From a virus: DNA of 64,000 nt. This document shows, piece after piece, positions 10,800-51,066 of this stretch. The position numbers were made by a program, and so were the translations under genes. Below the pieces are notes generated by a model, which worked only from the letters and a program-made list of their open reading frames with translations, made no database searches and had not been told where the DNA came from. The stretch is taken from IMG/VR virus record IMGVR_UViG_3300009514_000014, positions 19,956 through 83,955 of that record; one strand, written 5' to 3'. Positions within the stretch are counted from its first letter, which is position 1; each line of letters starts with the position of its first letter.

Positions 10800-10830
10800 T
10801 CGAAACGTGACCATGATCGACTAACCCATT

Positions 10831-11407: not shown

Positions 11408-11416
11408 GTCTCGCAC

Positions 11417-11538: not shown

Positions 11539-11551
11539 TAGGAGCAATCGA

Positions 11552-12226: not shown

Positions 12227-12228
12227 GC

Positions 12229-12678
12229 ATGGCGCGTCTACTGCCGCTGCTTGTGCTCCTTTATGTGTCAGGCTGCAGTGAAGAGGAATTCTTCGCTTGT
12301 ATTGGAAAGCCAGCGACTGGTGACTTGATCTACTTCGGCAGTGCCATGAACGATGCAAGTGTCGGCTGTGTGAACTGCCATCGTGAACGCAGAGATGGTG
12401 GTCCTGACATCTCAGGCCCTGAAGCCAAGATAGGCGTCTCGCATTCAGCGATCACTCAACTCGGCGCGCATCCCGTCGGTTCGAACTATCAAGCAGCAAA
12501 AAACTTCAACCCGAAACTCAATCTTCGAGAGATTGCCGACCTCGACGAGCGCATCGTGCTCGTCGACGGAACTGTGCAATGCGCAACATGCCACACTGAT
12601 CACACTGCAGGTGAGACACACGACACGGCATTACCCATGAAGGCCAGTGAGTTGTGCTTCGCCTGCCATGCAATGTAA
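12229..12678 (+). CDS. Triheme c-type cytochrome lipoprotein
   Basis: 149 residues. A short hydrophobic leader ends in a lipobox (YVSGC, Cys ~16), so the mature protein should be anchored to a membrane outside the cytoplasm. Three CxxCH haem-binding motifs are visible: CVNCH (~46), CATCH (~123) and CFACH (~145), the last two spaced as in the doubled-CXXCH family; several further His can serve as distal ligands. Haem attachment would rely on the host cytochrome c maturation system. It follows pyrF with a 2-nt gap. An electron-transfer role is inferred from the family. Confidence 0.88.
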   Translation: MARLLPLLVLLYVSGCSEEEFFACIGKPATGDLIYFGSAMNDASVGCVNCHRERRDGGPDISGPEAKIGVSHSAITQLGAHPVGSNYQAAKNFNPKLNLREIADLDERIVLVDGTVQCATCHTDHTAGETHDTALPMKASELCFACHAM

Positions 12679-12718
12679 CAAATCAGACGTCCAGCAAGGC
12701 GTCTGTAAGGGGGGCTAG

Positions 12719-13441: not shown

Positions 13442-13496
13442 CTCCTGAAAAAATGAGAGTAGGCTCGGTTGGTTTGCTTATGCGGAAATCAAGAAA

Positions 13497-13826
13497 ATGC
13501 CTACGACGAAACACGTGCCGGAAGACCGGCTTTTACACACGATCAAAGCCCTGCTAGCAGCCGACCTCGCCGACTCGGTTCGCGTCATCTCCTGCCCCGT
13601 CTTTGACTTACCAGAAGACCACCAGTGGCATCACAGCCACTACATCGAGGTGCACCCCGATGGCCTGGTAGAGCTCTGGCAGTTCGACGGCGGGCAGCAC
13701 GTCATGGTGACCGCTTGCCAGGACCCTCAGGGAGAGAAGGCAGTAGCGGCTGCTCCTCTTGCGCCAGAGATGGCGTCTGCATTTCTGCGTGGACCCGATC
13801 TGCAATATGCGAGCGCCACACCCTGA
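13497..13826 (+). CDS. Hypothetical protein
   Basis: 109 residues; helix at the N-terminus (residues 8-30) and a strand region HSHYIEVHPDGLVELWQFDGG (~45-65). Weak ribosome binding site. Its 3' end overlaps the convergent gene by 125 nt; both frames look protein-like, so the boundary between them is uncertain. Confidence 0.5.
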   Translation: MPTTKHVPEDRLLHTIKALLAADLADSVRVISCPVFDLPEDHQWHHSHYIEVHPDGLVELWQFDGGQHVMVTACQDPQGEKAVAAAPLAPEMASAFLRGPDLQYASATP

Positions 13827-13977
13827 GACATAGCGCAAGGGGTGCCACCCCTTTGCAGATCTCTCCACTGGCAGATTTGAACTCCTCGCGAGTCAGTAGA
13901 CCATCATTGTACAAGTCGACGAGCTCTCCGTACTTGTGCCCCGCCATCAGCATCTGATCTAGTTTCTTGCGACGCAT
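13702..13977 (-). CDS. Small hypothetical protein (SHOCT-like helix)
   Basis: 91 residues from an ATG with a near-perfect GGAGGTGA 4 nt upstream on the minus strand. The region KYGELVDLYNDGLLTREEF (residues ~15-33) resembles the short helical SHOCT-type segment. The C-terminal part overlaps the converging gene and may be less constrained. Confidence 0.6.
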   Translation of the reverse strand: MRRKKLDQMLMAGHKYGELVDLYNDGLLTREEFKSASGEICKGVAPLALCLRVWRSHIADRVHAEMQTPSLAQEEQPLLPSLPEGPGKRSP

Positions 13978-14008
13978 TCGTCACCTCCTACTAGCTATAC
14001 TTAGAAGC

Positions 14009-14037
14009 GTGACAAAATCGGCAGACGCTGCTAGATT
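14009..14037 (+). promoter_or_regulatory. Candidate sigma-70 promoter
   Basis: GTGACA, 17 nt, TAGATT. It lies 70 nt upstream of the start at 14107 and would drive the 14107-15778 genes and the SRP-like RNA. Inferred from sequence only. Confidence 0.4.
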
Positions 14038-14106
14038 GTTAGCTTCCGTGGCGGTCGAAGTCCTGACGTGGCGTCAGGCAGAAATTCCGTCCGAAGGAGA
14101 AAAATC

Positions 14107-14931
14107 ATGGAAGCGAACTTGTGCACCGTAGAGGTGCGCGTTCACGGACGTCCTGTTCGTGAATACCGACACAACGGCCAAACTTTCATCGAGGGACGCA
14201 AGGGGACAGACTTCGTCTTGCGTGTCCGCAACACGATCGGCTGCCGCATTCTGGCGGTGATCTCAATCGACGGTCTCAGCATCATGGACGGGAAGGTCGC
14301 CAGCGTGAATGACATCGGGTACATTATCGATCCGTACGAGTTCATCGACATTCCTGGCTGGCGCCTCAATGACCACGCTATCGCGAAATTCGTGTTCGAT
14401 GCGTCGGCAGGCAGCTACGCCGCACAGATGGATAAACCGCAAAACATCGGCGTTATTGGCTGCGCCATTTTCAAAGAAGAGCCACGTCCTCCAGTTATGC
14501 GTCATACGGTGCTCGACATGAACCGAGGTGGCGACCCCCGTGGTCAAACCAGGGGCGGGCATTCGGGCGTGGGTAACATGACCTACAACTCGGCGACTTG
14601 GACGGGCGGACCAACAAGCTCGACGACATCGCCATTCAAAGGTGGCGAGTCTGTTGCCACGGTCTATTGCAGCTCGACGCCACAAGTCCAACAAGAGGTC
14701 GGCACTGGATTCGGCGCAGAGCAGACACACGAAGTCACGTCGGTGGAGTTCAATCGCAACAACCTGACCCCCGACGAGACACTCGAGATCCGTTATGACT
14801 CGAAGAAGGCCCTCAAGAAGCGAGGCGTGCCGATGCGCAAACCAGTCACCGTGACACGCAAAGAGCCGACACCGTTTCCCGCAGACGAAAACTGCAAGCC
14901 ACCTCCAGGGTGGAAAGGAGCTAGGCGTTGA
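14107..14931 (+). CDS. Conserved uncharacterised protein
   Basis: 274 residues from an ATG with GAAGGAGA 7 nt upstream. The first ~130 residues (EVRVHGRPVREYRHNGQTFI, then VISIDGLSIMDGK and NIGVIGCAIF) form a beta-rich domain of a family I recognise from many bacterial genomes without assigned function. Residues ~140-215 are Gly/Ser/Thr-rich, and the C-terminus is basic and Pro-rich. It overlaps the next gene by TTGA. Confidence 0.75.
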   Translation: MEANLCTVEVRVHGRPVREYRHNGQTFIEGRKGTDFVLRVRNTIGCRILAVISIDGLSIMDGKVASVNDIGYIIDPYEFIDIPGWRLNDHAIAKFVFDASAGSYAAQMDKPQNIGVIGCAIFKEEPRPPVMRHTVLDMNRGGDPRGQTRGGHSGVGNMTYNSATWTGGPTSSTTSPFKGGESVATVYCSSTPQVQQEVGTGFGAEQTHEVTSVEFNRNNLTPDETLEIRYDSKKALKKRGVPMRKPVTVTRKEPTPFPADENCKPPPGWKGARR

Positions 14932-15107
14932 AGAGCCAAATCAAGCTGTCAGAGTTGATAGAAGTCTGGGAAATACTACACGTCAAAGACACCGGCGACA
15001 TCGGCTTCTGCGACGTCGACAAAGCCCTCCAGGATGTCGGTGTGACGATCGTAAACGATTGTTCATCGGAGCAGCCGAAAGAGCTTGACCAGCACTCTGC
15101 ACGTTGA
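14928..15107 (+). CDS. Small protein with TTG start
   Basis: 59 residues, from a TTG whose last two bases form the stop of the gene upstream (TTGA). AAAGGAG lies 8 nt upstream of the start. The sequence (KSQIKLSELIEVWEILHVKD, then IGFCDVDKALQDVG) is regular and acidic, so it is likely real. Function unknown. Confidence 0.55.
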   Translation: MKSQIKLSELIEVWEILHVKDTGDIGFCDVDKALQDVGVTIVNDCSSEQPKELDQHSAR

Positions 15108-15430
15108 TAGGGTCAGCAAGTTCAAGTGAGAGACCGTTGGGTGGTAGGTCGTTAAACCGAGGGGGAAACTCCTCAGTGGCCAGCATCACCCTGAAGGGGG
15201 CTAGGATCGAGGGATAGGCGGCGGCGAGCATAGCTGGCGCACTAACCACGGTCTGAGGGATTTGCTTCCAGGCAAGATAAACCGGTCTGGCTGCGGTGTA
15301 AGAACCGGGTCGGGATTGGTGTAAGAGCCTGAGTAGCGGGGATGATGTAAGGAGGTCATCGGCAGGGAGCATCAGCTTTGATCTGTCGGAACCAGACCGC
15401 AGCATTCACTTAGGTCACAGTGCAACACTT
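15108..15430. other. Unassigned 320-nt stretch
   Basis: No convincing gene on the plus strand. A minus-strand frame (14983-15405) reads LAWKQIPQTVVSAPAMLAAA and similar plausible segments but lacks a ribosome binding site and overlaps the TTG-start gene. Several short inverted repeats are visible. It may hold the 5' part of the SRP-like RNA transcript or another RNA. Confidence 0.4.
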
Positions 15431-15491
15431 GAGCCGCTAAGGCGCGCCAACTGCCAGGCCCGGAAGGGAGCAACAGTCGGCGCGCTTTTTT
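15431..15491 (+). ncRNA. SRP RNA (4.5S)-like hairpin with terminator tail
   Basis: GGAA (15462-15465) caps a CCC/GGG stem. Below it is the symmetric internal loop CAGG (15455-15458) / AGCA (15469-15472), the highly conserved Ffh-binding core of bacterial SRP RNA domain IV. The stem continues as ACTG/CAGT and GCGCGCC/GGCGCGC and ends in six T. The hairpin is about 50 nt, shorter than usual 4.5S RNA (~90-115 nt). It could offer a binding site for host Ffh and so modify or sequester SRP. The match rests on the core motif; a chance terminator hairpin would not be expected to have it. Confidence 0.72.
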
Positions 15492-15568
15492 CGTTCAGGG
15501 TATTGACAAGTTGCCCGCCATGTCTCACAAAGAATGTAACAGATGTTACAACTTTGGCACCACGAGAC

Positions 15569-15778
15569 ATGTATCACCACTGCGACAGATGCCGCGAGCG
15601 CGCCTTACCGGCCCTTGCACACTTACACGGGCTAGGCGAGCTTCTATGCTGGTCTTGCACGCAAGGCATCCTTTTGTGCAGAAGAAAAGAAGAGGAACGG
15701 TTGACAGTAGAACGGCTGGCCCTAAGCTATGATCTGCTGCGGGGGATGAACCCCCGCCAACCGAAACTCGCAGCTTGA
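15569..15778 (+). CDS. Small zinc-finger protein
   Basis: 69 residues starting MYHHCDRCRERALPALAHLH, with CDRC and CWSC pairs about 25 residues apart, a typical four-cysteine zinc site, followed by a basic helix. CACGAG precedes the ATG. The frame is open further upstream to 15503, but the extension is less convincing. Confidence 0.5.
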   Translation: MYHHCDRCRERALPALAHLHGLGELLCWSCTQGILLCRRKEEERLTVERLALSYDLLRGMNPRQPKLAA

Positions 15779-15789
15779 AGGTAAAGACC

Positions 15790-16135
15790 ATGCGACCGTG
15801 ACAGTCAGCCTACTCGGCAATCAAACCCGCCTCTCTACCACTACGTAATCGTTAGAAAAGATCTACCGCTAGGTATGCTCGCGGCGCAAGTCGTCCATGC
15901 GGCCGGAGAATCCAGCCCTGGTGAGCTCCCTGCGGGCACTCACGCGGTTGTTCTTTCGGCCGGCACGGTTGGGCTCCATGCGCTCTCCGAGCGCCTGACG
16001 AGCGAATCTGTACCTCATAGCCCCATAATCGAGAACGATCCTCCTTACGAGAACCAGCTGATGGCGATCGGAATCACCCCCGCTCGCAAAGAGGAGATCT
16101 ATCCGTACGTCAGAAAGTTCGAGTTGCTCAAGTAA
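15790..16135 (+). CDS. Peptidyl-tRNA hydrolase Pth2/PTRHD1-like, with an apparent +1 frameshift
   Basis: The domain reads YHYVIVRKDLPLG, MLAAQVVHAAGESSPG, GTHAVVLSA, then PPYENQLMAIGITP at its C-terminus, the signature of Pth2-type peptidyl-tRNA hydrolases of the PTRHD1 subgroup. They free tRNA from stalled peptidyl-tRNA, complementing the tmRNA here. The homologous frame has no ATG, GTG or TTG between an in-frame TAA at 15782 and residue YHYV. A well-placed GAAGG followed by ATG at 15790 opens a frame that meets CCG-TGA-C at once; a +1 shift there enters the homologous frame. An internal ATG at 15875 would lose the first strand. Confidence 0.72.
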
Positions 16136-16180
16136 GAACAATGATTCTACTTGTTTACATAATGATCAAAAAGTGTTCGA

Positions 16181-16254
16181 TGGCAGGAGATGTAGTGGCG
16201 CATGCGCGCAACTCTCGAGTCCGCGTCGACCAGGTTCGAATCCTGGCCTGCCAG
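16181..16254 (+). tRNA. tRNA of irregular anticodon arm (possibly Glu CTC)
   Basis: TGGCAGG pairs fully with CCTGCCA, T arm CCAGG/CCTGG with loop TTCGAAT, D arm ATGT/GCAT. The anticodon region does not form a standard 5-bp stem: CGCG/CGCG encloses a 13-nt loop containing ACTC/GAGT. The best 7-nt loop reading, CTCTCGA, gives CTC with two stem mismatches. Confidence 0.5.
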
Positions 16255-16346
16255 TTTGGATGTGTCACAGGAGAGGTATGGGGGGCCGTATGCGACGTCA
16301 CCCCCTCTTGGCCGCTAAATCTTCGTGATGCTTGGCGTCGCGCCAC

Positions 16347-16429
16347 GCTCGGCCCCCTTACGTTGGAGGGGGGGATTGCGCAGCCTAGCTGCACGATTTC
16401 ACATGGTTCGAATCCATGGCCGGGCGCCA
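16347..16429 (+). tRNA. Irregular tRNA with encoded CCA; apparent anticodon CTA
   Basis: GCTCGGC (16347-16353) pairs with GCCGGGC (16419-16425), followed by G and an encoded CCA. T arm CATGG/CCATG with loop TTCGAAT; D arm CCCT/GGGG with GG in its loop. The anticodon arm GCGCA / TGCAC (four pairs) has loop GCCTAGC, apparent anticodon CTA, with C at position 33. That anticodon would read UAG, but TAG is an ordinary stop here, so function is doubtful. Confidence 0.45.
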
Positions 16430-16431
16430 AT

Positions 16432-16507
16432 GCGGGAATAGCTCAGTTGGCAGAGCGCCGTGGACTACGGCTCCCGGAGGTCGGAGGTTCGATCCCTCCT
16501 TCCCGCA
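16432..16507 (+). tRNA. tRNA-Arg(ACG)-like with extended anticodon stem
   Basis: GCGGGAA pairs with TTCCCGC; D stem GCTC/GAGC; T arm GGAGG/CCTCC. The anticodon arm has three extra bases: CCG/CGG outside and GGA/TCC inside, with a bulge, around loop CTACGGC (ACG). Confidence 0.55.
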
Positions 16508-16518
16508 TCGAGTATTAC

Positions 16519-24900: not shown

Positions 24901-25187
24901 TTGTCGTCTCCTTCTTTTAGCAAACCCAGCTCGTCCAGCATCTGCAAGCATTGGTCTGCGCGATACAGTGCGTTTTCTCGTTCAGCGCCCTTCAAACAAA
25001 CGAAGTGCGCGGCTTCTATTTTCCTCATCGCCATTGGGTTGATGTCGGCGGTCGAAGCAACCGACAGGAGCGTCTGGCGTTCGCAAACATGAAATTGCTC
25101 AGCGAGCTCCTCTCGCAGTTTCACCTTCCACGGCGGAAGCTCGGGTCGCTCTGCTTGCCAAACACTCACCAGTACTCCTTCCATCAA
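24897..25187 (-). CDS. Small hypothetical protein
   Basis: 96 residues, helical, three cysteines; begins by overlapping the methyltransferase stop and ends in an ATGA overlap with the nuclease. No family recognised. The tight coupling on both sides suggests it is translated. Confidence 0.6.
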   Translation of the reverse strand: MMEGVLVSVWQAERPELPPWKVKLREELAEQFHVCERQTLLSVASTADINPMAMRKIEAAHFVCLKGAERENALYRADQCLQMLDELGLLKEGDDK

Positions 25188-26185
25188 TACTGTACTTTCA
25201 AGCGCACCACAGAGCCGGGTTGCTCGCGTTCGAGTTTGTTGATGGCTTCGTTCTCGTTGATGTACTTCATGTTGACGTCACAGATGACTGAGCGACGTCC
25301 GTGTTTCAACGCAGCTTCGGCCACAACACCGGACCCGGCGAAGGGGTCCAGCACCCATTCACGTTCGACGGTGGAGTTCAGCACGAGACGTTCCACGACC
25401 TCCAACGGTTTTTGTGTTGGCGGGTCATTGCGACCGGCGCGTTTGCCGACGAGGACGTTGGGGTACGAGCGGTCGTTGAGTGCGCGTTTGCCCTTCTCTA
25501 AGAACAGGATGCGCTCGGTCGATGTGGCCCAGTGGTAGCCGGTGCCCTTGCGGATAATCTTGTATGCAATCTCCACAATCTTCTGGCGCGCGGTGAGCAA
25601 CGGGTTATTCACGATTGCCAACAGCGTTTCGAGAAAGGTCTTGTCGACAGTCTCGCGGACCTTCAACCAGGTCAGCGTCGGCCATGGATGCCACGATTTG
25701 CCTACGACCGCGTGTAGCGGAGCGAGCAGTCCACCGAATGTCGCGTTGGTGTACTCGACGAGCACCGCATCATTTTTGAGGTAGAACGGATTGCGTCCGC
25801 TGTAGATGACGTGTTCGGTCTCGCAGTCGCAGAAACAGTACAGATGTGTATTGGGTCGCTGGACCTCGTGAAGCCAGTACAGCAAGTCCCAGTAGCGCGT
25901 GTTGGCCAAGATCGAAAACCAGGGATTGGAGCTCGCCTTGGAGTCCTTGAGCCGCGTTGTGGTGCCTACAGCCCGATGGCGCTCCAAGGACTCGTAGGGC
26001 GGGTCGGTGATCGTCAGTGCAATCACCTCGGGCAGTAAAGGGAGAATATGATCCCAGCTGCCCTCGATGATGATGCACTTTGTGGGTTCGACGTCATTCA
26101 TCGCCAGACCAAGAGCGACGTACAGGTCGTTTCTGGTCGCGATCAGGTCGTCGCGGAGGTTTGCCTGTCTACCAAAAAAATTCAT
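25184..26185 (-). CDS. DNA methyltransferase (amino-methyltransferase, DPPY type)
   Basis: 333 residues. ITDPPYESLERHR (~57-69) is the catalytic DPPY; the AdoMet-binding VLDPFAGSGVVAEAALKHGRR (~290-310) follows near the C-terminus with TQKPLEVVERL, the order of beta-class enzymes. It methylates adenine N6 or cytosine N4, probably to protect phage DNA from restriction. No restriction partner is seen. Confidence 0.88.
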   Translation of the reverse strand: MNFFGRQANLRDDLIATRNDLYVALGLAMNDVEPTKCIIIEGSWDHILPLLPEVIALTITDPPYESLERHRAVGTTTRLKDSKASSNPWFSILANTRYWDLLYWLHEVQRPNTHLYCFCDCETEHVIYSGRNPFYLKNDAVLVEYTNATFGGLLAPLHAVVGKSWHPWPTLTWLKVRETVDKTFLETLLAIVNNPLLTARQKIVEIAYKIIRKGTGYHWATSTERILFLEKGKRALNDRSYPNVLVGKRAGRNDPPTQKPLEVVERLVLNSTVEREWVLDPFAGSGVVAEAALKHGRRSVICDVNMKYINENEAINKLEREQPGSVVRLKVQY

Positions 26186-26188: not shown

Positions 26189-26977
26189 CTAGAGCATCCA
26201 GTCCATGTCTTCGAAGCAGCACGGAATCAGCTTGATGAACATCGCGAGTGCTTGCTTCATCGTGCTGCGAATTTCCCACTGCGCGTGTCCGTCGCAGCGC
26301 AGTGTGAAGACGTGCCGCCATTGGCGGATGTTGTACGTCGTGCAGACTTCCGTCTTGCAGGCGTTTGGCAAGACGAAACGCGCGTCCTCAGCCTTAACGC
26401 CGTTCGCCAGCAGATTGAGGTAGGTTTGATAGCTTGTCAGGCACTGATACAGGAACGCGTTTGTTCGTTCTGTTTCAGGTGAAGGTGGCATATTGGCGGA
26501 GATGAGCTTGTGACCTTGATTGAGTGGAGCAGCCTCGTTTCTGAAAACCATGACGTCGCGCGCTTGATTCAATCGATACACGGTACCTGCAGGTAAGTCG
26601 TCGATGGTTGATGGGCAGATGACCTTCAGCAACTTACCGTGTTTCTTTTTGCCATAGTTGCAAAAGCGCTGTGACTCTTGCGAGTATGCGGCGATGCGGT
26701 GCCGCACGAGCTGATGGGACGCTGTTCGCGAAAACGTAAAGCGACCTGTGATGGCGCCGTGCTCCAACACCGACTCGTGTTTCGAGACCTCGTCTTTGCC
26801 TTTGATGGCAACGCGTTTGATCAGTGTGTCGGCAGAATCTTCGGTGATCTTATCCTCCGATTTGTAGCAAACGCGGATGCAGCGCTCCAACAATTGTGGG
26901 ATGCGGGCGACCTCCTCGGGGTCACTGAGGAGCTCGAAGGAGGGTGTGACGATTTGAATTCCTGGATGATCGATCAT
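26189..26977 (-). CDS. thyX: Flavin-dependent thymidylate synthase
   Basis: 262 residues with the ThyX signature RHRIAAYSQESQRF (RHRxxSxxxxSxR variant, ~95-108), SVLEHGAITGRFTFSRTASHQLVRH upstream and a C-terminal RxxAR-like VLPNACKTEV region. It converts dUMP to dTMP using FAD, NADPH and methylene-tetrahydrofolate. In line with PyrF and the nucleoside kinase, it feeds phage DNA synthesis. Confidence 0.92.
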   Translation of the reverse strand: MIDHPGIQIVTPSFELLSDPEEVARIPQLLERCIRVCYKSEDKITEDSADTLIKRVAIKGKDEVSKHESVLEHGAITGRFTFSRTASHQLVRHRIAAYSQESQRFCNYGKKKHGKLLKVICPSTIDDLPAGTVYRLNQARDVMVFRNEAAPLNQGHKLISANMPPSPETERTNAFLYQCLTSYQTYLNLLANGVKAEDARFVLPNACKTEVCTTYNIRQWRHVFTLRCDGHAQWEIRSTMKQALAMFIKLIPCCFEDMDWML

Positions 26978-41803: not shown

Positions 41804-41850
41804 AGCCGGAAATACTAGCAGCTCGCGAGAGTACTAGAAGGTTGCGACAT

Positions 41851-43611
41851 ATGAGCCAAGACACTAGCGTGGAAGAAACCGAATCCGTAGCACTCGTCAA
41901 GGCTGAAATAATGGGTGGAGGCGGAGCTCGATCAAACCTGATCGAGCTCTTGACGCAATCTCAGGACGCCATGCCTACAGGGGCGATGACCCCTCCGTAC
42001 GACTTCCAGATGCTGTACAATTTGTTTGAGTCATCTTCGCTACTTAGACCAAACATCGATGCCTACAAGACGAACATCGACTCGTTCGGCCACCATTTCG
42101 TTCCGATTGTCGACCTGACGGCTAAGGAATCTACCCAACAGATTTCAGACGCCATGCTCTACGAGAGCATGATGGCGGTGCAATCCGGTGCCACGTCGCT
42201 GGCCGACGTCGAGGAACCGACTCCTGAGGAGGTTAAAGAGCGCAAAGACCACCTCCAGAAGGTGGCGCGTCTCGAGCACGCACGCCTGCGGGCATTCTTC
42301 TCGTTCGTGTGTCCGGATTTGAGCTTCACCGAGCTACGCCGTAGAACGCGGCAGGACTACGAGGTCACCGGCAACGCCTGGTGGGAGGTGATCCGCAACG
42401 CACTCGACGACGTTGCCCACGTCTACTATGCGCCACCAATCAACATCCGCCTACTTGCCAAAGATGATGAAGCAATTCAGGTTGAGGAGCGGGTGCAGGT
42501 CACCGATATCACATGGACGACAGTCAAGCGCTGGCGCCGATTCCGCCGATTTGTGCAGGTCGACACGAGCCGCGACCCAATTTTCTTCAAGGAATACGGC
42601 GATCCACGCACCGTCTCGCGCGCGACCGGTGCCTACTACCGCGATGTCGCCGCCTTGATGGCCGAGGAGCCGGACGCCAAGCCTGCATCAGAACTTCTGC
42701 ACTTCGCGCTGTTCACGCCGAACTCTCCTTATGGGATTCCGCGCTGGATCTCCAACCTGCCAGGCGTGCTTGGCACCCGTGAGCTCGAGGAGGTCAACTA
42801 CGACTACTTTCGCAATAACGTCGTGCCCCCTCTTGCACTCCTGTGCAGTGGCGGTCGCTTCGGGAAAGGCGTCGCCACCAAGATCGAGGAGTACATCGAA
42901 GAGCACCTCAAGGGGCGCAAGGGCACCCATCGCATCCTCGTGTTGGAAGCTGAGGGCCAAAAGGGCGCCGGAGAGTCAGGTCCGAGGTCAGTGCCGAAGG
43001 TGCAGTTCGTGCCACTGCGAGACGCGCAGCAGTCAGACTCCCTCTTTCAAAACTACGATTTGCGCAACTCCGAGAAGGTCGCGCACTCCTTCCGCCTGCC
43101 TCGAATCCTCAGGGGTGATGACACCAAGATCAATCGAGCTACGGCTTTCATCGCATTACGCTTCGCCGAGGAACAGGTATTCGAGCCTGAGCGCGAGACC
43201 TTCGACGATGTGATCAATCGGCAACTATTTCCGGTGCTCGGCGTCACCTTCTGGCGCTATAGGTCCAATGCGCCTGTCGTGCGCGATCCAGACAAGCTCG
43301 CTGAGATGTTGGAGCGCCTGGTCAAGGCTGGAATCTTGTTGCCACGAGAAGCTCGAGAGATTGCCGCCGACATCTTCAACCGCAACTTCGTCGACATCTC
43401 TGAAGAGTGGACCGGTAAACCGCTACCCTTCACCTTGGCGCAACTCCGCTCCAACCCAGATGCACCAGTGGACGATCCACCGAAGGACGACGATGACGCG
43501 GATGAAGACGAACCAGCGCCGACCCCCACTGTCGCCGCACAAAGACCGCCGACCAGAGACGACTCGACGTTTCTGCGCGCCGGCAGGCCATACAAAGCGT
43601 TGGGCGAGTAA
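41851..43611 (+). CDS. Portal protein
   Basis: 586 residues from the ATG at 41851 with AGAAGG 10 nt upstream. FARLEHARLRAFFSF-type region, YEVTGNAWWEVIRNALD, YGIPRWISNLPGVLG and the EEVNYDYFRNNVVPPLALL segment match the PBSX-type phage portal family at normal length. The C-terminus is acidic/Pro-rich. Forms the dodecameric DNA gate of the head. Confidence 0.9.
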   Translation: MSQDTSVEETESVALVKAEIMGGGGARSNLIELLTQSQDAMPTGAMTPPYDFQMLYNLFESSSLLRPNIDAYKTNIDSFGHHFVPIVDLTAKESTQQISDAMLYESMMAVQSGATSLADVEEPTPEEVKERKDHLQKVARLEHARLRAFFSFVCPDLSFTELRRRTRQDYEVTGNAWWEVIRNALDDVAHVYYAPPINIRLLAKDDEAIQVEERVQVTDITWTTVKRWRRFRRFVQVDTSRDPIFFKEYGDPRTVSRATGAYYRDVAALMAEEPDAKPASELLHFALFTPNSPYGIPRWISNLPGVLGTRELEEVNYDYFRNNVVPPLALLCSGGRFGKGVATKIEEYIEEHLKGRKGTHRILVLEAEGQKGAGESGPRSVPKVQFVPLRDAQQSDSLFQNYDLRNSEKVAHSFRLPRILRGDDTKINRATAFIALRFAEEQVFEPERETFDDVINRQLFPVLGVTFWRYRSNAPVVRDPDKLAEMLERLVKAGILLPREAREIAADIFNRNFVDISEEWTGKPLPFTLAQLRSNPDAPVDDPPKDDDDADEDEPAPTPTVAAQRPPTRDDSTFLRAGRPYKALGE

Positions 43612-43640: not shown

Positions 43641-44045
43641 ATGAGCGACAAGAACGACAAGACAGACCCGAAGACCGAAAAGGCGATCGCCAATGTGTTG
43701 GCCGACGCCAAGTTGGATATCGATCCCACGCCTTTCCGTTCGTTTATTCGAAATGAGCGGGACTTGGTTGTAGTTTACAAGGCGCTTGAGAAGGCGATCA
43801 TGCGCAGTTTCGCCGAGGACCTCCGTCGCAACCCATTCGGCAGGTTGGCGCAGAGTGGGGTCAAGGAGTCTGACCTTCAGGAGCGCTTCAAGATGTGCGA
43901 GACATGGATCAGACGAGCTCGGGGTGACCTGGGCTTCTCTCTCGACAAGACTCTCGACCTGATGCCGCATGCCTTGCGCTGCGAGATAGACGGTCAGACC
44001 TTCGATCCTGCCACCATGAGAACCAGTATTTGGACTCCGACATAA
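43641..44045 (+). CDS. Hypothetical head-module protein
   Basis: 134 residues, helical and charged, ending LMPHALRCEIDGQTFDP. It overlaps the next ORF. Position between portal and protease suggests a head-assembly factor; no family recognised. Confidence 0.65.
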   Translation: MSDKNDKTDPKTEKAIANVLADAKLDIDPTPFRSFIRNERDLVVVYKALEKAIMRSFAEDLRRNPFGRLAQSGVKESDLQERFKMCETWIRRARGDLGFSLDKTLDLMPHALRCEIDGQTFDPATMRTSIWTPT

Positions 44046-44062: not shown

Positions 44063-47000
44063 ATGCCCACAAATAAGTCTGAGCTGACTGCCGCCATCAA
44101 GCGGCTTAGCAGTCTTGTCTCGAGCCTCAGCGATCTGCCAGCTTCGGCGCCGGCTCCAGCCGTCGTGGTCCCGCAGGGATCCATCATTACGTTCGAGAAG
44201 AAGTACGTCGACTTAATCTGCGCCGGCAAGAAAACGCTGGTCGTCAATCCTGATAGATTGGCGCTGGATGCATCCGCCCTGCTGCTGTCGGACGGCACCA
44301 GTTTGTTCGGCAAGCTCACGTTGGCCAAAGGGCGGCCAATGCCCGTCGCCGAGTTCAGGCGGCGCAAGGCAGAGCATGGCATCCCCGATGACGAACGCAA
44401 GAAAGCTTGGCCGCAGAAGCGTCGGTTGTTCTCGCACAAGATCGAAGCGCTGGAAGTGTTCGACACACCGATCGCCAAGGACGCCACCAAGCCTCCAGAA
44501 CCGGTGCCGCGCGTGCTCGACACCTACTACAAGCGCAGCCTCCGCAAGGCGGAACTCGCCGACCTGGCCGCGAATGAAGAGGCTGTCGAGGCCTTTGATC
44601 GAATCCAAGAGCTAGCGCTGTTGCTCTCGAAGCGCGTCAAGCCTCTGGTCGAGCACACCATCGAGTTCATGCAACCACCTAAAGAGGACGAGAATCTGCT
44701 CATCGAGTTGTCGCCGATCGGTCGCCAGGTCCATGACGCCTACTCGCAGGTCATCGGAATGACCGGCACCGTGAAACGCCCCAAACAGCCGGAGACTTAC
44801 AACTCGTTCGTCGTCGCCGAGGAGCTGCTGCGCCAGATGGATATGGCGCAGAAAGTTCTGCCACCGCGCTCCTACCTGGCTGACCTCGCCCGACTGGCCT
44901 CGAAAAGGTTGGCAGCCTTTTTGAAGCTCGAGCCGCGCTTCCAAGAGGGCTCACGCCCCTTCGAGTTGCCGGAGGCGGCCAGTACCAAGAAGGCGGACTC
45001 TAAACCTGTGTTCGCCGACAGCCCAGTTGTCGACCTTGATCTTATATCACCGCACGACATCATAAAAAGCGCCGGTCGACCCTGGTTGGGTGAGCGGTCA
45101 CTGGTAGCGACAGAACTCGACCAGCTCGACAACCAACACTTGGCCGCCATGCACATTGCAATGAGTCGCACTATTGCATCGCCGTCAGTATCGGTGTCAA
45201 AGGACGAACGCGAGCTCGCCAGAAATGTGCAAAAGGCGTCACGGACTCTTCTCCTAAAACGTGGCGCCACGTTTGGAGATGAAGAACCGGAGCTACAGTG
45301 GGCGCCCCTACCAGACTTGACGGCTATCGCTGCTGCACTGCCAGATCTGCCACCGGAGCTTGATGGGAACCCTGAAGCGTCGGCGCTGGCAAAGGCCTTC
45401 GTGGATGCGTTGCCGAAGCTGAGCGAGGCCGGCATCCCGGTCGCTGCAGTGTATGACCTTGTCGCCAATAGAAGCGAGGAAGTCGAAGCAGCCGTCGACA
45501 TGGCAGCCACAGGTGAGCACTTCTTATGCGGTATCGACAAGGCAGCAACGCAACCGCACTTGAAGTTCGTCGGCACTGAGAAAGCCACACAGGGCGTACT
45601 GCAGATTCATTTCCGAGGCAAGACTGCGCACGCTGACTTCCGTTTCAAATCGGACGGGCACCTGATCGGCTACACGATGGCCGTCCAGTCCGCCGGAAAG
45701 GTACCGGAGCTGAGCAGTAAATCTGAGGCGTTCGCCTTGGCACGCAAGTTCGACGCTAAAGGCAGCGGGTGGAACAAGTCGTTCTTCGCGCCGCATAAGA
45801 TTTTCACCACGCTCAAGCCTGCGCATCCCAACCCGTGGCTAAAAGCGCACAACGTGGAGTTCGAACCAGGTGAAGTCGGTGCGACGCACAACAAGCCCGG
45901 CTACATGTTCGTGGTCGCGAAGCCAATGGTGACTCGCGGCACCGCGCATCCGCTGTTTCACGAGTACTTCTTGGAAGGCGACGCCAAATTCCGTGGTCGC
46001 CTTGTATTCCGCAAGGTCATGCAAAAGGACGTCGAAGGTGGAGACCCCCGTTTAGAGTCCGGACGACGACCGGCCAGTGGCTTCTGGGTGGCCTTGATGG
46101 CCGAGGACCTGATGCCGTACGTCTTGACGACAAAGGCAGTACGTCGCGGCAAGATCCCACCCAAGGGCTGGTCTGCACTACCGCCAGGATTGAAGGCCGT
46201 CGTGCCCAAGCAACTGCGGTACTGGCTCGCTGATAGCGAGAAGGAGCGCAAGCGGGTTCGACAAGAGCTCGTCAAGTCCAAATTCTTCACCCGTGACAAC
46301 ATCAAGATCGTTGACGGTGCTTTTCGGCGCGTCGTCGCGAAGTACTTCCTCTATCAGCCAGAGGTGGAGGTCGAAACGGAGAAGAGCGCGGAGGTCGCAG
46401 TCGAGAAGCGTGTCGGAGCTCAGCTGTGGGGCTCCACGGCAGGCAAGTCGAACATCGCCAAGCCGCTATCCACGCTATTCCCACTGCACAAGCGCTACGT
46501 GGAGCCCTTCGCTGGGGGTGCTGCACTGTTTTACGCCAAGGAGCCCGGCGCTGAGGAAGTCCTCAACGACATGGACGCCGAGGTCGCGCACGCCTTCCAG
46601 TTCGTCCGCGACATGACACCTCAGCAGCATGCAGCCCTGAAGCGCATGAACTGGGTGGGGAGCAAGGAGCAGTACAAAAAACTGGCCGAGCTCGATCCGG
46701 CCAACCCCATCGACCGCGTCTACAAGTTCATGTACATGACGACCTTCGGCTTCATGCGCAATCGACATCGCAAGACAGCTGTCGACCCGTCACGCATGGG
46801 TTCGAAGTCGACGATACCCGATCGTATCGACAAAACTCAAGCACGCCTGCAGGGCGTACACATCAGCTCGACCGACTACGCGGCTGTGATCGACAAGTAC
46901 GACGGGCCAGACACCCTGTTCTTCTTGGACCCGCCGTATGCCAAGGCGAATCAAGAAGTAGGTGAGAGTGCCTTCGACATCGATCGATTCTGGGGCACAC

Positions 47001-48469
47001 TCAAGACCATCAAGGGCAAGTTCTTGGCCACCTGCGACGTGCCGTCGCCGGACAGCTCTGGATTTCAGGTGCGAAAGTTCACCCATGCAGCCGGTGCAGG
47101 CCACCATGGTGGCACCAAGCAGTACGTGACGTACTTGATCTCCAACTACACCCTACCGGCCAAGCTCGGCAAGAACGCCCACGGTTTTCTCGAGAAGAGC
47201 GACCAGCGGCGGGACTGCTGCATGCAATGCCAAAGCGCACCAGAGATCGAATGCGTTTGGGCTGACGGTCGAGGACGTGCGTGGTTCTGCAAGACGCACT
47301 GGGATGCCTGGCGCAAGGAGTACGGCTTCGATATCAACAAGCACCGCCGAGTCATCGGCGGGGCAGTCGGCGTGCGCTATGGCGAGACGGCAGTGAACAA
47401 GAAGCTGAGCGAGAAACAAAACAAGGAGTACGAAGCCGAGACCGCCAAGATCCGCGAAAACAAGAAGCTCCCCGCAGCAGCCAAACGACACAAGTTCAAG
47501 GCTGCCGAATTCACACACAAGAACGGCCATCCGCGATGTTTGATCTGCGGCGACGAGCCCGACATGGATGGAATGTGCGAGGGGATTGAGAAGAGCGATA
47601 CCAGTAGTAGGCACCAACGCCCACCCACCGACCTTGAGGATATAGACACAGATATAGTCGGTCAAGACAAAAATTCAGAAATCCGCAAGATGGTGGGCAT
47701 CGTTTGTTCTTGCGACAAGCTGGCGGAAGATTCCTACGCTGTCGGCTACGCCGTGGGGCCAGTGGAAGCCGACTCTGGCTGGTCAGATACCGTGGAGGTT
47801 GGCAACCATCTATATGTACCCGTAGGCAAAGCGCACGTCTCGGAAGTGCCGGACATGCACGCGGTGGCCACCGGTACGGCTACGATCGAGGTACCCATTC
47901 ACGAACTTCTATACGACATATCTAAGAGTGACAGCCGACGTCTGCTGTCCTTGGCGAAAGCCGGAAGCGAGTTCGTAGATCGAGTGCCCTTCGCTGCCAG
48001 TGAGCTTACCGCCATGCTACGTGATGGTGAGACAGTGACCAGCGAGGCTGAAGTTCGCGACAGTTTGCTGAAACGGTTCGGTAGGCCAGGCGGCACGTGC
48101 TTGTCGTCGATCGTTAAGAGCTCGGATGATGAACGTTACGTGCTTGGTGTGGTACTTATTCCGGACGTTGAGGACTCTCAAGGTGATTTCTACAGTGCCG
48201 AGGAAGTCCGCAAAGCGTCTGAATACTTCATGGAATTCGCTCGCACTCTTGGGTTGATGCACGAGAGTTCGCTTGACGACACCAAGATCAAAATCCTCGA
48301 GAACTACATCGTCAAGGTCGACCAGACCATCAACGGTGTCGCAATCAAGCAGGGCACATGGATGCTAGCTGCTAGAATTATTGACGATGACTTGTGGCTC
48401 GCAGTAAAGACTGGTAGGCTCACGGGGTGGAGCATAGAGGGATCAGCTATCGCACAGCGTCTTCGCTGA
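44063..48469 (+). CDS. Giant fusion: ASCH-like, LigD-PE-like, Dam methyltransferase and XkdF protease
   Basis: 1468 residues from ATG 44063. In order: an ASCH-like region (GSIITFEKKYVDLICAGKKT, ~40-140); helical region; a part resembling the LigD phosphoesterase fold (LQIHFRGKTAHADFRFKSDG, ~510-760); a D12-class adenine methyltransferase (YVEPFAGGAALFY, DMDAEVAHAF, FFLDPPYAKAN, ~785-1030); cysteine fingers (CCMQCQSAPEIEC; CLICGDEPDMDGMC); and an XkdF-type domain at the C-terminus (VLGVVLIPDVEDSQGDFYSA...TGWSIEG). XkdF is a putative prohead protease of PBSX-like phages. The frame is open throughout. The ASCH and LigD assignments are less certain than the others. Confidence 0.82.
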   Translation: MPTNKSELTAAIKRLSSLVSSLSDLPASAPAPAVVVPQGSIITFEKKYVDLICAGKKTLVVNPDRLALDASALLLSDGTSLFGKLTLAKGRPMPVAEFRRRKAEHGIPDDERKKAWPQKRRLFSHKIEALEVFDTPIAKDATKPPEPVPRVLDTYYKRSLRKAELADLAANEEAVEAFDRIQELALLLSKRVKPLVEHTIEFMQPPKEDENLLIELSPIGRQVHDAYSQVIGMTGTVKRPKQPETYNSFVVAEELLRQMDMAQKVLPPRSYLADLARLASKRLAAFLKLEPRFQEGSRPFELPEAASTKKADSKPVFADSPVVDLDLISPHDIIKSAGRPWLGERSLVATELDQLDNQHLAAMHIAMSRTIASPSVSVSKDERELARNVQKASRTLLLKRGATFGDEEPELQWAPLPDLTAIAAALPDLPPELDGNPEASALAKAFVDALPKLSEAGIPVAAVYDLVANRSEEVEAAVDMAATGEHFLCGIDKAATQPHLKFVGTEKATQGVLQIHFRGKTAHADFRFKSDGHLIGYTMAVQSAGKVPELSSKSEAFALARKFDAKGSGWNKSFFAPHKIFTTLKPAHPNPWLKAHNVEFEPGEVGATHNKPGYMFVVAKPMVTRGTAHPLFHEYFLEGDAKFRGRLVFRKVMQKDVEGGDPRLESGRRPASGFWVALMAEDLMPYVLTTKAVRRGKIPPKGWSALPPGLKAVVPKQLRYWLADSEKERKRVRQELVKSKFFTRDNIKIVDGAFRRVVAKYFLYQPEVEVETEKSAEVAVEKRVGAQLWGSTAGKSNIAKPLSTLFPLHKRYVEPFAGGAALFYAKEPGAEEVLNDMDAEVAHAFQFVRDMTPQQHAALKRMNWVGSKEQYKKLAELDPANPIDRVYKFMYMTTFGFMRNRHRKTAVDPSRMGSKSTIPDRIDKTQARLQGVHISSTDYAAVIDKYDGPDTLFFLDPPYAKANQEVGESAFDIDRFWGTLKTIKGKFLATCDVPSPDSSGFQVRKFTHAAGAGHHGGTKQYVTYLISNYTLPAKLGKNAHGFLEKSDQRRDCCMQCQSAPEIECVWADGRGRAWFCKTHWDAWRKEYGFDINKHRRVIGGAVGVRYGETAVNKKLSEKQNKEYEAETAKIRENKKLPAAAKRHKFKAAEFTHKNGHPRCLICGDEPDMDGMCEGIEKSDTSSRHQRPPTDLEDIDTDIVGQDKNSEIRKMVGIVCSCDKLAEDSYAVGYAVGPVEADSGWSDTVEVGNHLYVPVGKAHVSEVPDMHAVATGTATIEVPIHELLYDISKSDSRRLLSLAKAGSEFVDRVPFAASELTAMLRDGETVTSEAEVRDSLLKRFGRPGGTCLSSIVKSSDDERYVLGVVLIPDVEDSQGDFYSAEEVRKASEYFMEFARTLGLMHESSLDDTKIKILENYIVKVDQTINGVAIKQGTWMLAARIIDDDLWLAVKTGRLTGWSIEGSAIAQRLR

Positions 48470-48542
48470 GTTTGTTTCCGGGGAATCCCCAAAGAACTAT
48501 CTTGACTTCCAGCCCTCAGGGCTGCCAAATTAGCAATTGACT

Positions 48543-50075
48543 ATGCCACGCGAGTTCGATAGATTAGCTCCGCACCGTCAAAAGCGACGTCTAAGTGACA
48601 TCGAGCCTGAAAAGGTAGATCTTGTCGATAGAGCGGCCAACCAAACCCGTTGGGTCGTTGTCAAGCAGGAGGATAGAATGCCAGGACCAACGCTCACGCC
48701 AGCAGCTGGAGGCGGATTCAATACTCCCGCAGCTGCCAACCTCATTCAAGCCGAAGAGGCTTTGGCGAAACTGACAACGGCTGTCACCGCGTTTCGCGAC
48801 AAGCTCGCCAAGGGCGAGGAAGCCGATGCCAGTGAAGCTCTGGCCGCGACGCAAGCCGCTGCCGCCGAGTTGGCCGAGAAGGCCGAAGGGGGCATCAAGG
48901 CCGCGTTGACGCAAGTCGCCGAGTTGGCCGCTGAGTTGGCCGCCGTCGAAGACATGCCAGCAGAAGAGATGGCCGTCAAGATCAAAGAGTTGATGACCAT
49001 GCTCGAGACCGCCGTCAATGGCGGCGAAGCCGACGATCCGGCAAAGAACGCCGCGCCGCCCCCCGCAGCAGCACCTCCCGTCGATCCAACAGCAACCCCA
49101 GCACCGGCCGCCACCGACAAAAACGCGGATGGCGCCCTGGCCGCAGCCCTTCGGACCGTGTCTGACAGCTGCGTCGAGTTGGCCGGACGGTTGAACGACC
49201 AAGACGGTATCGCCAAGGCGGAAGTCACGAGTGCAAAGGGCATCGCCGATCAGCTCGACGCGATGGTGACCAAGATGGCCATCGTCAAGAGCGAAACTGC
49301 ACCGCGTCTGCCCGACGTGTTCGGGACCGAGTCGCCGCTGCACGCCGAAATCGCCAAGGGCGCTATCGAAGTGCTCCGTGACATCGCCGGTCGCGCGGCC
49401 ACGGTCGCCAAGATGGTCGACGGTGTCGATCCTTCAGACGCAAGCAAAAAAGAAATCGGTGTTCTGGCTCAGTTGGCAACCGCTCTTCAGGAGCGAATGC
49501 CCACGTTCACCGCGAAAGCCGCTACGACGTTGCAGGAGAGCATCTCCAACACCGCGATGCGTATCCTCAACCTCTCCGATCGCGTGGCCAAGTCGACCTT
49601 CGCCGATGCAGTCGCCTTGCGCGAGTTCGCCAACACCCGCACGCTCATCGACGCCGTGATCGCCAAGCAAGTCGATGGCGGAACGCCCTCGATGACCGAT
49701 CTCGGTCAGGTCCTTCAGGCCGACAAGTGGCTCGGAGACTTCGAGCGCCGTGTCGCCGCCCACGAGACGGCTTCGGCCGCGCCGGCACCTGCTCCGGCCG
49801 CACCTGCGGTCCCGGCTACTCCACCGGCCACCGTCGCCAAGTCCGCCGATCCCGCAAGCGATGCGTTCAAAACCAAGTTCGAAGCGCTCAAAACGCAGAT
49901 GAATGAGATGCAGACGGCTATCTCTAAAGCCGCCGGCATCACACCGCCACCGGCAGCCGGTGGAGGCGAAGGCGACAAGGGCGGCCAGTCGGAGTACGAG
50001 TTGTTCCCCGATAATTTCAACGATCCCGCTTTCAAAGCGGAAGTCGCGAAACGTGAACAGGCCCCAAACGGCTAG
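48543..50075 (+). CDS. Capsid scaffold / assembly protein
   Basis: 510 residues from ATG 48543. The start (REFDRLAPHRQKRRLSDIEPEKVDLVDRAANQTRW) resembles the lead sequence that often accompanies XkdF-type proteins; the rest is Ala/Glu/Lys-rich helix and Pro/Ala linkers. Immediately precedes the capsid gene, as scaffolds do. Confidence 0.75.
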   Translation: MPREFDRLAPHRQKRRLSDIEPEKVDLVDRAANQTRWVVVKQEDRMPGPTLTPAAGGGFNTPAAANLIQAEEALAKLTTAVTAFRDKLAKGEEADASEALAATQAAAAELAEKAEGGIKAALTQVAELAAELAAVEDMPAEEMAVKIKELMTMLETAVNGGEADDPAKNAAPPPAAAPPVDPTATPAPAATDKNADGALAAALRTVSDSCVELAGRLNDQDGIAKAEVTSAKGIADQLDAMVTKMAIVKSETAPRLPDVFGTESPLHAEIAKGAIEVLRDIAGRAATVAKMVDGVDPSDASKKEIGVLAQLATALQERMPTFTAKAATTLQESISNTAMRILNLSDRVAKSTFADAVALREFANTRTLIDAVIAKQVDGGTPSMTDLGQVLQADKWLGDFERRVAAHETASAAPAPAPAAPAVPATPPATVAKSADPASDAFKTKFEALKTQMNEMQTAISKAAGITPPPAAGGGEGDKGGQSEYELFPDNFNDPAFKAEVAKREQAPNG

Positions 50076-50142: not shown

Positions 50143-51066
50143 ATGCCACAAGATAACCGAACCCTCCTCCGCAAAGCGGAGCTGGAAGTCGCAGACTTCA
50201 CCAATAAGGGTCTGCTCAACAGCGAGCAAGCCAGCAAGTTCATCCAGCTGGCGATCAAGGAGCCCGTGCTGTTGCAAGACGTCACGGTCACCTCGATGAA
50301 GGCGTTCAAAGAGGAACGCGACAAGATGCGTTTCGCGAATCGCGTGTTGCGTGGCGGCCAAGAATCGACGCCGCTACCCAATGCTTCCTGGGCTACACCG
50401 ACGCTCGGCATGTTCGAGCTCGACGCCCAACTCTTCAAGGCCGAAGTTCGCATGTCGGACGAAGTCCTCGAAGACCAGATCGAGCGTGGCACCTTCCAGA
50501 CCACACTGATGAAATCTTTGGCGAAAGCCATCGGTCGCGACATGGAGTACGTCGCGATTCAAGGCGACACCGCCTCCGCCGATCCGACCCTCGCAAAACT
50601 GGATGGCATCCTAAAGCAGGTCGCCACCCATGTCGTCAACGCGGCTTCGGCCAAGTTGACCAAAACTATCCTGCGCGACATGATGCGCACCATGCCCGAC
50701 GAGTTCGCCAACAACCCGAACTTGAAGTACTACACCAATCGGGCGGCGCGCATCGACTACCGCGATTCACTCGGCGACCGCGCCACTGGCCTGGGCGATC
50801 TCATGATCCAAACCCAGGGCAAGACGCAGTACTCCGACTACCCCGTCGAGCAAGTTCCGGAATTCCCGGTGGACGGCTCGGACAACACGCAGGCGCTCTT
50901 CATCGACCCCGAGAGCATCTACTTGGGCATCCTGCGCGACATCAAAGTCAAGGTCGCCGAAGACATTTCGGCGGGCACCGTCATCATCGTGGTGACAACC
51001 CGTTTCGACGTCAAAGTCGCCGAGACCGCAGCGGTCGTGAAGGCCATCAACCTCAAGGGCGCGTAA
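50143..51066 (+). CDS. Major capsid protein (HK97 fold)
   Basis: 307 residues with AGGAGGAATCTG before the ATG. SKFIQLAIKEPVLLQDVTV, FELDAQLFKAEVRMSDEVLED, an E-loop-like MRFANRVLRGGQE and a P-domain region ending VVTTRFDVKVAE fit the HK97-type capsid family. A perfect 11-bp hairpin follows the gene. Confidence 0.85.
   Translation: MPQDNRTLLRKAELEVADFTNKGLLNSEQASKFIQLAIKEPVLLQDVTVTSMKAFKEERDKMRFANRVLRGGQESTPLPNASWATPTLGMFELDAQLFKAEVRMSDEVLEDQIERGTFQTTLMKSLAKAIGRDMEYVAIQGDTASADPTLAKLDGILKQVATHVVNAASAKLTKTILRDMMRTMPDEFANNPNLKYYTNRAARIDYRDSLGDRATGLGDLMIQTQGKTQYSDYPVEQVPEFPVDGSDNTQALFIDPESIYLGILRDIKVKVAEDISAGTVIIVVTTRFDVKVAETAAVVKAINLKGA

What the first reader, a model, noticed from the sequence alone, without database searches (positions are those of the whole stretch)
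44063..48469. 1468-residue fusion of head protease, DNA methyltransferase and other domains
An XkdF-type domain ends a polypeptide that also contains an adenine methyltransferase and probable ASCH and LigD-PE-like domains. Placement between portal and scaffold suggests co-assembly into the prohead followed by self-cleavage, so enzymes could be packaged and delivered with the DNA.
Basis: partly seen in the sequence, partly recalled or inferred. Interest (0 to 1): 0.75.

Follow-up and report, generated by a model that had tools for sequence, protein, structure and literature searches.

The report
Head protease fused to DNA-repair enzymes
This virus makes one very long protein that joins its shell-maturing protease to DNA-handling enzymes (a DNA-end-cleaning domain, a DNA methyltransferase and others), and dozens of uncultured viruses carry versions of the same cassette, often with a DNA ligase, which suggests that some viruses pack DNA-repair and DNA-protection enzymes inside their particles.

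Summary
One intact 1468-codon ORF (44063-48469, +) lies between portal and scaffold. It encodes an ASCH domain, a LigD 3'-phosphoesterase (PE)-fold domain, a D12-class adenine methyltransferase, a zinc-motif stretch, an OB fold that matches the OB of relatives' DNA ligases, and a C-terminal XkdF head protease. PE and ASCH were verified by AlphaFold plus Foldseek. The fusion is not a one-off. In related viral contigs the same place holds polyproteins of up to 2310 aa ending in XkdF, carrying ATP-dependent DNA ligase + OB, one or two PE domains, metallo-beta-lactamase, 2H phosphoesterase or 1-3 Dam domains; other viruses hold the same modules as neighbouring genes. Catalytic residues are conserved (PE metal triad 35-36 of 37; Dam DPPY 34 of 34). 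The 20 nearest XkdF genes in bacterial genomes (mostly Myxococcota) are all Dam-XkdF fusions. The motif [ILVM]xK[SAQ] is enriched in scaffolds and at domain junctions (54% vs 30%, P=0.001; replication set P=0.02), a candidate cleavage site. Best explanation: the enzymes ride into the prohead on the protease, are cut free, and act on viral DNA in the head or at entry. Packaging and ejection are inferred. I found no report linking XkdF to this kit.

The parts
44063..48469 (+). Polyprotein ORF, 1468 aa, ASCH - helical region - LigD-PE - Dam - Zn motifs - OB - XkdF
44222..44503 (+). ASCH-fold domain (residues 54-147)
   Evidence: leave-window-out HMM 3.6e-21; AlphaFold + Foldseek ASCH hits
44504..45532 (+). 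Unassigned region, residues 148-490; only the first part has a relative (L013)
   Evidence: no Pfam hit
45539..46342 (+). LigD 3'-phosphoesterase-fold domain (PE1, residues 493-760); H516, H523, D525, R527 match PaeLigD H42, H48, D50, R52
46439..47155 (+). D12-class N6-adenine DNA methyltransferase domain (residues 793-1031), motif I PFAGGAALF and motif IV DPPY intact
47183..47617 (+). Two cysteine/histidine (zinc-type) motifs, residues 1041-1185, shared with L002
47681..47938 (+). OB fold homologous to the OB of the DNA ligases in sister polyproteins (residues 1207-1292); ligase core absent
   Evidence: (5.1e-5, leave-window-out)
48107..48448 (+). XkdF head-maturation protease domain (residues 1349-1462)
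   Evidence: 1.5e-27
45533..45544 (+). Candidate cleavage site I-D-K-A just before PE1
   Evidence: inference
47189..47200 (+). Candidate cleavage site L-E-K-S after Dam
   Evidence: inference
47585..47596 (+). Candidate cleavage site I-E-K-S between Zn region and OB
   Evidence: inference
47918..47929 (+). Candidate cleavage site I-S-K-S after OB
   Evidence: inference
48110..48121 (+). Candidate cleavage site I-V-K-S before XkdF core
   Evidence: inference
41842..43611 (+). Portal protein
   Evidence: Pfam Phage_portal 6.8e-15
43641..44045 (+). Small conserved ORF between portal and polyprotein
   Evidence: relatives in about 20 loci, between portal and protease
48537..50075 (+). Scaffold-position ORF; N-terminal segment resembles the N-terminal segment of XkdF proteins; contains several [ILV]xK[SA] motifs
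50143..51066 (+). Major capsid protein
   Evidence: Pfam Phage_capsid 7.8e-13, phrog_1623 1.2e-81

Best explanation
The ORF is a head polyprotein. Shown: a head-maturation protease (XkdF) at the C-terminus is fused to a string of folded nucleic-acid enzymes, in the head-gene slot between portal and scaffold, and this arrangement is conserved across many viruses. Inferred: XkdF carries the string into the prohead together with scaffold, the protease cuts it and the scaffold at lysine sites in the linkers ([I/L/V]-x-K-[S/A/Q]), the freed enzymes stay in the head, and they act on the viral DNA in the head or on entry into the cell. The sister proteins define the job best: PE domains clean 3' ends, ligase seals, and the metallo-beta-lactamase, PNKP-like or 2H domains process other ends; together a DNA-end repair and joining kit. 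In the window's lineage the ligase core and second PE are gone, and a Dam methyltransferase sits in the string, so this version most likely cleans 3' ends (with host ligase sealing) and methylates the incoming genome against restriction.
For: Domains verified. Homologous XkdF-terminated polyproteins of up to 2310 aa with DNA ligase, PE1/PE2, MBL, Dam or 2H domains. XkdF-fused PE1 domains form one group on the tree (support 95/81), with the window inside it. The same modules occur as adjacent genes beside XkdF (L077-L080, L082, L088) and beside portal, a different protease family and MCP in L087, so the kit belongs to the head locus whatever the protease. Conserved gene order. Catalytic residues conserved in PE1 (H 35/37, H 35/37, D 36/37, R 34/37) and Dam (DPPY 34/34), and the ligase lysine (EPKxNG/KKxDG) in all ten aligned, which argues for working enzymes. 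Motif enriched in polyproteins (2.5x) and scaffolds (3.4x) and at junctions (54% vs 30%, P=0.001; replication set 39% vs 20%, P=0.02), with no excess for R, E, D or Q versions at junctions. In most ligase carriers searched the polyprotein holds the only ATP- or NAD-dependent ligase found. Precedent: P1 Dar proteins, including the very large DarB, are packed in the head and ejected with the DNA, and DarA and MCP are cut by the head protease Pro (PMC12810830).
Against: I found no virion proteomics, cleavage or activity data for any member. The motif was first seen by eye, and KA matches are also enriched in MCP and portal, partly at conserved positions; the replication set is only modestly significant. 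PE1 lacks a clear counterpart of PaeLigD His84/Tyr88 (a lysine is conserved there instead, 34/37), so its chemistry may differ. No Ku was found, although the records are fragments. In the window the ligase core is missing, so a complete repair reaction would need host enzymes.
Confidence: 0.52

Rival explanations
1. Late cytoplasmic enzymes: the protease cuts the string, the enzymes are not packaged, and they act on replicating DNA in the infected cell (nick sealing, methylation of progeny DNA before packaging). Fusion only ensures equal expression.
For: In most ligase-bearing records the polyprotein holds the only ligase found, so replication could depend on it. Methylating progeny DNA before packaging would also defeat restriction.
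Against: Head-gene location next to scaffold, retained even with another protease family (L087), is a poor place for early replication enzymes. A head protease is normally active only inside the prohead (general knowledge), so release outside it is unexpected. The window lineage lost its ligase core while keeping XkdF and PE1.
Confidence: 0.22
2. Action inside the head only: the kit repairs nicks and ends of the DNA during or after packaging and is not ejected.
For: Same location and co-assembly evidence as the best explanation. PE and ligase chemistry suits nicks and blocked ends.
Against: Ligase needs ATP and Dam needs S-adenosylmethionine, which a sealed head would have to hold; DNA density leaves little room for large enzymes to move (general knowledge).
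Confidence: 0.13
3. Structural exaptation: the domains are inert filler or core proteins that help shape a large prohead, like internal head proteins.
For: Large internal masses do shape heads in other phages (P1 DarA/Hdf). Some members are degenerate: L018 has lost PE catalytic residues and the window's OB has lost its ligase core.
Against: Catalytic residues are conserved across 37 PE1 and 34 Dam domains and the ligase lysine in all aligned cores. Non-homologous enzymes with related chemistry (MBL, PNKP-like, 2H, ligase, PE) keep being recruited.
Confidence: 0.1
4. The main purpose in this virus is anti-restriction; the PE/ASCH parts are leftovers from a ligase-bearing ancestor. (A narrower version of the best explanation, so the two overlap.)
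For: The Dam-XkdF fusion alone is found in 20 of 20 nearest bacterial-genome relatives, some with three Dam domains. The window's Dam groups with these (85/85). Ligase core and PE2 are lost in the window and in its sister L017.
Against: PE1 keeps its metal triad in the window and is one of its best-conserved regions.
Confidence: 0.3

Closest known systems
XkdF-type head maturation proteases (Pfam PF14550; B. subtilis PBSX, Lactococcus 28201, Methanothermobacter psiM100, Otagovirus phiPsa374)
   Same: Same protease domain and same slot between portal and scaffold/MCP.
   Different: In the named phages inspected XkdF is small (151 aa) or carries only short extensions or a scaffold-like part; no named phage record covers 80% or more of the window ORF or of a Dam-XkdF fusion.
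LigD 3'-phosphoesterase (PE) family of bacterial and archaeal NHEJ
   Same: Same fold; metal-binding H, H, D and the Arg conserved; in sister viruses joined to an ATP-dependent ligase, as in LigD.
   Different: Very divergent in sequence; His84/Tyr88 not evident; no primase-polymerase domain seen and no Ku; fused to a head protease.
ANMV-1 archaeal virus 'ATP-dependent DNA ligase' (AJP62006)
   Same: Ligase + PE1 + PE2 in a CDS right after the portal.
   Different: No XkdF fusion and no Dam; the main text of the genome paper does not mention the ligase (PMC4372165).
Phage P1 Dar system (DarA, DarB, Hdf, Ulx, DdrA, DdrB)
   Same: DNA-modifying enzyme packed in the head, head protease processing of head cargo, anti-restriction at entry (PMC12810830).
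   Different: Separate genes, not fused to the protease; DarB is a methyltransferase-helicase of another family (PMC5512222).
Polyvalent proteins (Iyer et al. 2017)
   Same: Very large multidomain phage proteins mixing nucleic-acid enzymes, proposed to be injected with DNA.
   Different: The words XkdF, LigD and ASCH do not occur in that paper's main text; their signature domains were not seen here.

Membership tests
XkdF head protease (PF14550) | Pfam match above gathering cut-off | tested here: met
   96.5 bits vs 24
XkdF head protease (PF14550) | Located between portal and scaffold/MCP | tested here: met
XkdF head protease (PF14550) | Proteolytic activity on scaffold/MCP | not testable with these tools
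   only a candidate site motif
LigD 3'-phosphoesterase superfamily | PE fold | tested here: met
   7 of 7 PDB hits with E<1e-3 are LigD PE; Pfam LigD_N matches the PE2 region of relative L098 at 1.8e-4, below Pfam's own cut-off
LigD 3'-phosphoesterase superfamily | Metal triad His42, His48, Asp50 | tested here: met
   H516, H523, D525; 35-36 of 37 relatives
LigD 3'-phosphoesterase superfamily | Phosphate-binding Arg52, His84, Tyr88 | tested here: inconclusive
   Arg conserved (34/37); the likely His84 position holds Lys (34/37), Tyr88 not evident; alignment there is unsure
LigD 3'-phosphoesterase superfamily | 3'-end phosphoesterase activity | not testable with these tools
   needs assay
NHEJ system (LigD + Ku) | Ku gene present | tested here: not met
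   0 of 18 records, which are fragments
ATP-dependent DNA ligase (window protein) | Adenylation core with catalytic Lys | tested here: not met
   no PF01068 match anywhere in G000; OB only, 5e-5
D12-class Dam methyltransferase | Pfam match above cut-off and DPPY motif | tested here: met
   59.8 bits vs 22; DPPY present
Dam subfamily TIGR00571 | Curated cut-off 114.85 bits | tested here: not met
   56.7 bits; so GATC specificity should not be assumed
ASCH domain | ASCH fold | tested here: met
   Foldseek hits to ASCH structures; no Pfam match
Polyvalent proteins | Multidomain phage protein injected with DNA | not testable with these tools
   multidomain yes; injection unknown

The most novel reading that the evidence does not exclude
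Many tailed viruses, bacterial and probably archaeal, carry inside the capsid a ready-made NHEJ-like DNA-end repair kit (3'-end cleaning, nuclease, ligase, with methyltransferase as an option). The kit is loaded by direct fusion to the head protease and released by it, and it repairs or circularises and protects the genome on entry, without Ku.
Probability: 0.4. Interest if true: 0.87.

Novelty: new variant of a known kind. Interest (0 to 1): 0.76.

Why it matters
If true, virions would be more than DNA containers: they would deliver DNA-repair enzymes that rescue damaged or open-ended genomes before any viral gene is expressed. It gives a natural rule for loading enzymes into a capsid (fuse to the head protease, cut at lysine linkers), which is also useful for engineering. 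It suggests a role for LigD-like enzymes outside classical NHEJ, and points to culturable Myxococcus prophages in which the idea can be tested directly.

Tried and rejected
Chimeric assembly or chance ORF: rejected, because the architecture recurs in independent contigs and coding statistics are even. A DNA ligase in this virus: rejected, no core found. GATC-type Dam equivalog: not supported. 'DNA methyltransferase' labels on XkdF genes of Pseudomonas phages as prior examples of the fusion: rejected, those proteins are about 150 aa XkdF only. [ILV]xKA as a motif specific to head-protease targets: weakened, since it is also enriched in MCP at conserved sites; KS and the junction test carry the argument. 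PE1 scan of bacterial genomes: no relatives. Plasmids: only plain XkdF. PDB profile search with PE1: nothing; PE2 gave two archaeal LigD PE structures as its top hits at weak E-values of 0.17 and 0.55. Literature searches joining XkdF or LigD-PE with head or virion found no prior description; the library lacks many subscription papers.
Full report
WHAT IS THERE. The ORF runs from ATG 44063 (or TTG 44030) to the stop at 48469 and encodes 1468 aa. The window is part of an 83,955-base viral record. Pfam finds the D12 adenine methyltransferase and the XkdF protease above their gathering scores. The phosphoesterase and ASCH domains are below sequence-search reach in the window protein. AlphaFold models built on alignments of viral relatives find, respectively, only LigD 3'-phosphoesterases (7 of 7 PDB hits with E<1e-3) and ASCH proteins. 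HMMs built without the window sequence still find each domain in it (PE1 5e-88, Dam 5e-62, XkdF 8e-40, ASCH 4e-21, OB 5e-5). The OB fold is homologous to the OB of DNA ligases in sister polyproteins, but the ligase core is absent from the whole record.

A FAMILY OF SUCH PROTEINS. Scans of viral contigs gave relatives whose ORFs were mapped with Pfam and with HMMs made here. XkdF-terminated strings include: PE1-PE2-ligase-OB-XkdF (L007, L009, L011; 1345-1411 aa); ASCH-PE1-PE2-ligase-OB-XkdF (L013, 1797 aa); MBL-ASCH-PE1-ligase-OB-XkdF (L014, 1880 aa); MBL-ASCH-PE1-PE2-ligase-OB-XkdF (L015, 2306 aa, 2310 in the open frame); Dam-PE1-ligase-OB-XkdF (L019); Dam-Dam-PE1-PE2-ligase-OB-XkdF (L076, 1920 aa); ASCH-PE1-XkdF (L017); 2H phosphoesterase-XkdF (L025); Dam...XkdF (L018, L027, L036). 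L002 is cut by its contig end but shows Zn-PE2-ligase-OB-XkdF and is 44% identical (best segment) to the window within residues 721-1465. In other viruses the same modules are adjacent genes: [Dam-ligase][OB-PE1-PE2][XkdF] in L077-L080, L082 and L088; [ASCH-MBL-ligase-OB][PE1-PE2] next to portal, a head protease of another family and MCP in L087. L012 adds PNKP-like phosphatase and 2H domains. The archaeal virus ANMV-1 has ligase-PE1-PE2 immediately after its portal. A tree of 37 PE1 domains puts all 13 XkdF-fused rows on one side of a branch (95/81), with the window beside L017 (96/82); both lack ligase core and PE2. The simplest history is one fusion of an already existing head-locus repair cassette to XkdF, then loss of ligase and PE2 in the window/L017 line. 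The window's Dam groups with the first Dam of delta-proteobacterial prophage fusions, at moderate support (85/85).

BACTERIAL PROPHAGES. The nearest XkdF genes in 84,980 bacterial and archaeal genomes are 20 loci, mostly Myxococcota or other 'delta' lineages and including Myxococcus xanthus AM003; all are Dam-XkdF fusions, and L051, L052 and L058 have three Dam domains in a row. Where the contig reaches far enough, portal lies upstream and MCP downstream. This hints at a Myxococcota-like host for the window virus, by inference only. None of 50,697 named phage records holds a place covering 80% or more of the window ORF or of a Dam-XkdF fusion.

ARE THE ENZYMES ALIVE? PaeLigD needs His42, His48 and Asp50 for metal and has Arg52, His84 and Tyr88 around the phosphate (review PMC8656161). 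In 37 viral PE1 domains the matching residues are H 35, H 35, D 36 and R 34; a Lys (34/37) sits near the expected His84, and a nearly invariant His-Glu pair (HEYF) is added. Ligase cores keep the adenylation lysine. All 34 Dam domains keep DPPY. This speaks for function over filler, with exceptions such as L018 PE1.

CLEAVAGE SITE CANDIDATE. Reading the linkers suggested [I/L/V]-x-K-[S/A/Q]. Against within-protein shuffles it is enriched 2.5-fold in polyproteins and 3.4-fold in scaffolds; R, E, D and Q versions are weaker. Tail proteins show little or none (KA 1.0x, KQ 1.6x, KS 1.8x); MCP and portal show KA enrichment, partly at conserved positions, including an N-terminal VKA[ED] in the portal. 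Of 48 windows just upstream of a domain, 54% hold the motif against 30% of random windows (P=0.001; R, E, D, Q controls show no excess). In loci not used to form the idea it is 39% against 20% (P=0.02). Homologous junctions keep the motif while flanks differ, for example upstream of XkdF: IVKS in the window, VAKQ in L002, LVKQ in L013, IVKA in L007, LLKA in L027. This is a testable candidate, not a proven site.

MECHANISM. Shown: fusion, order, conservation, catalytic residues, motif enrichment. Inferred: entry into the prohead as part of the protease, cutting, retention, ejection, and DNA-end repair plus methylation at or before entry. The closest experimental precedent is P1, where Dar proteins are packed in the head, DarA and MCP are cut by the protease Pro, and the proteins are ejected with DNA to block restriction (PMC12810830). 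The rivals (late cytoplasmic work, action in the head only, structural filler, or mainly anti-restriction in this virus) are set out with their tests.

NOVELTY. Head-protease-processed internal proteins and polyvalent injected proteins are known kinds. Fusing a LigD-like end-repair kit to the protease itself was not found in any paper searched, with the caveat that the library is open-access only. I rate it a new variant of a known kind, and potentially more if packaging is shown.

Noticed in passing
L061 9201-9977 and 9344-10138; also L056, L057, L059, L062, L063, L065, L066, L068 (L054, L067, L070 similar): The major capsid gene of these Myxococcaceae prophages is split into two frames at the same place (HMM position about 195 of 306 in those aligned), with the downstream frame well conserved in independent genomes; programmed frameshifting or an old shared inactivation.
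   Followed up: partly
L086 2149-6714 (residues 992-1310); L015 polyprotein residues about 1747-2102; L011 2469-4121: Inteins: a Hint + LAGLIDADG intein between ligase core and OB in L086, a probable one splitting the OB in L015 (weak Pfam hit), and intein-type domains in an L011 head-region ORF.
   Followed up: no
L051 1-3066, L052 5226-8462, L058 1069-4062: Three tandem Dam methyltransferase domains fused to one head protease; the third Dam groups apart from the first two.
   Followed up: partly
phiPsa374 NC_023601 35996-36451; Boevelstad PQ464592 63315-63767: XkdF protease genes of about 150 aa are annotated 'DNA methyltransferase', probably spread from a mixed PHROG family (phrog_1530).
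   Followed up: yes
window 2310-16509: 22 tRNA genes and a tmRNA gene (tag ANDNAYAEPMAQAA) in the viral record.
   Followed up: no
window 25184-26185 (-): A second DNA methyltransferase-like ORF (DPPY and DPFAGSG motifs), separate from the polyprotein.
   Followed up: no
window 11552-12226 (+) and 26189-26977 (-): By eye, an orotidine-5'-phosphate decarboxylase-like ORF and a ThyX-like ORF; the former is an unusual gene for a phage.
   Followed up: no
L002 residues about 545-770: Three repeats of a His-rich unit (with HSHxxFVDEYTGNG and GHTHSIG stretches) between the zinc motif and the ligase in the sister polyprotein; not seen in other loci.
   Followed up: no
L035 7041-8507 and 8482-10260: A Dam-XkdF ORF followed by an ORF with a second Dam just after a scaffold-like N-terminal segment.
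   Followed up: no
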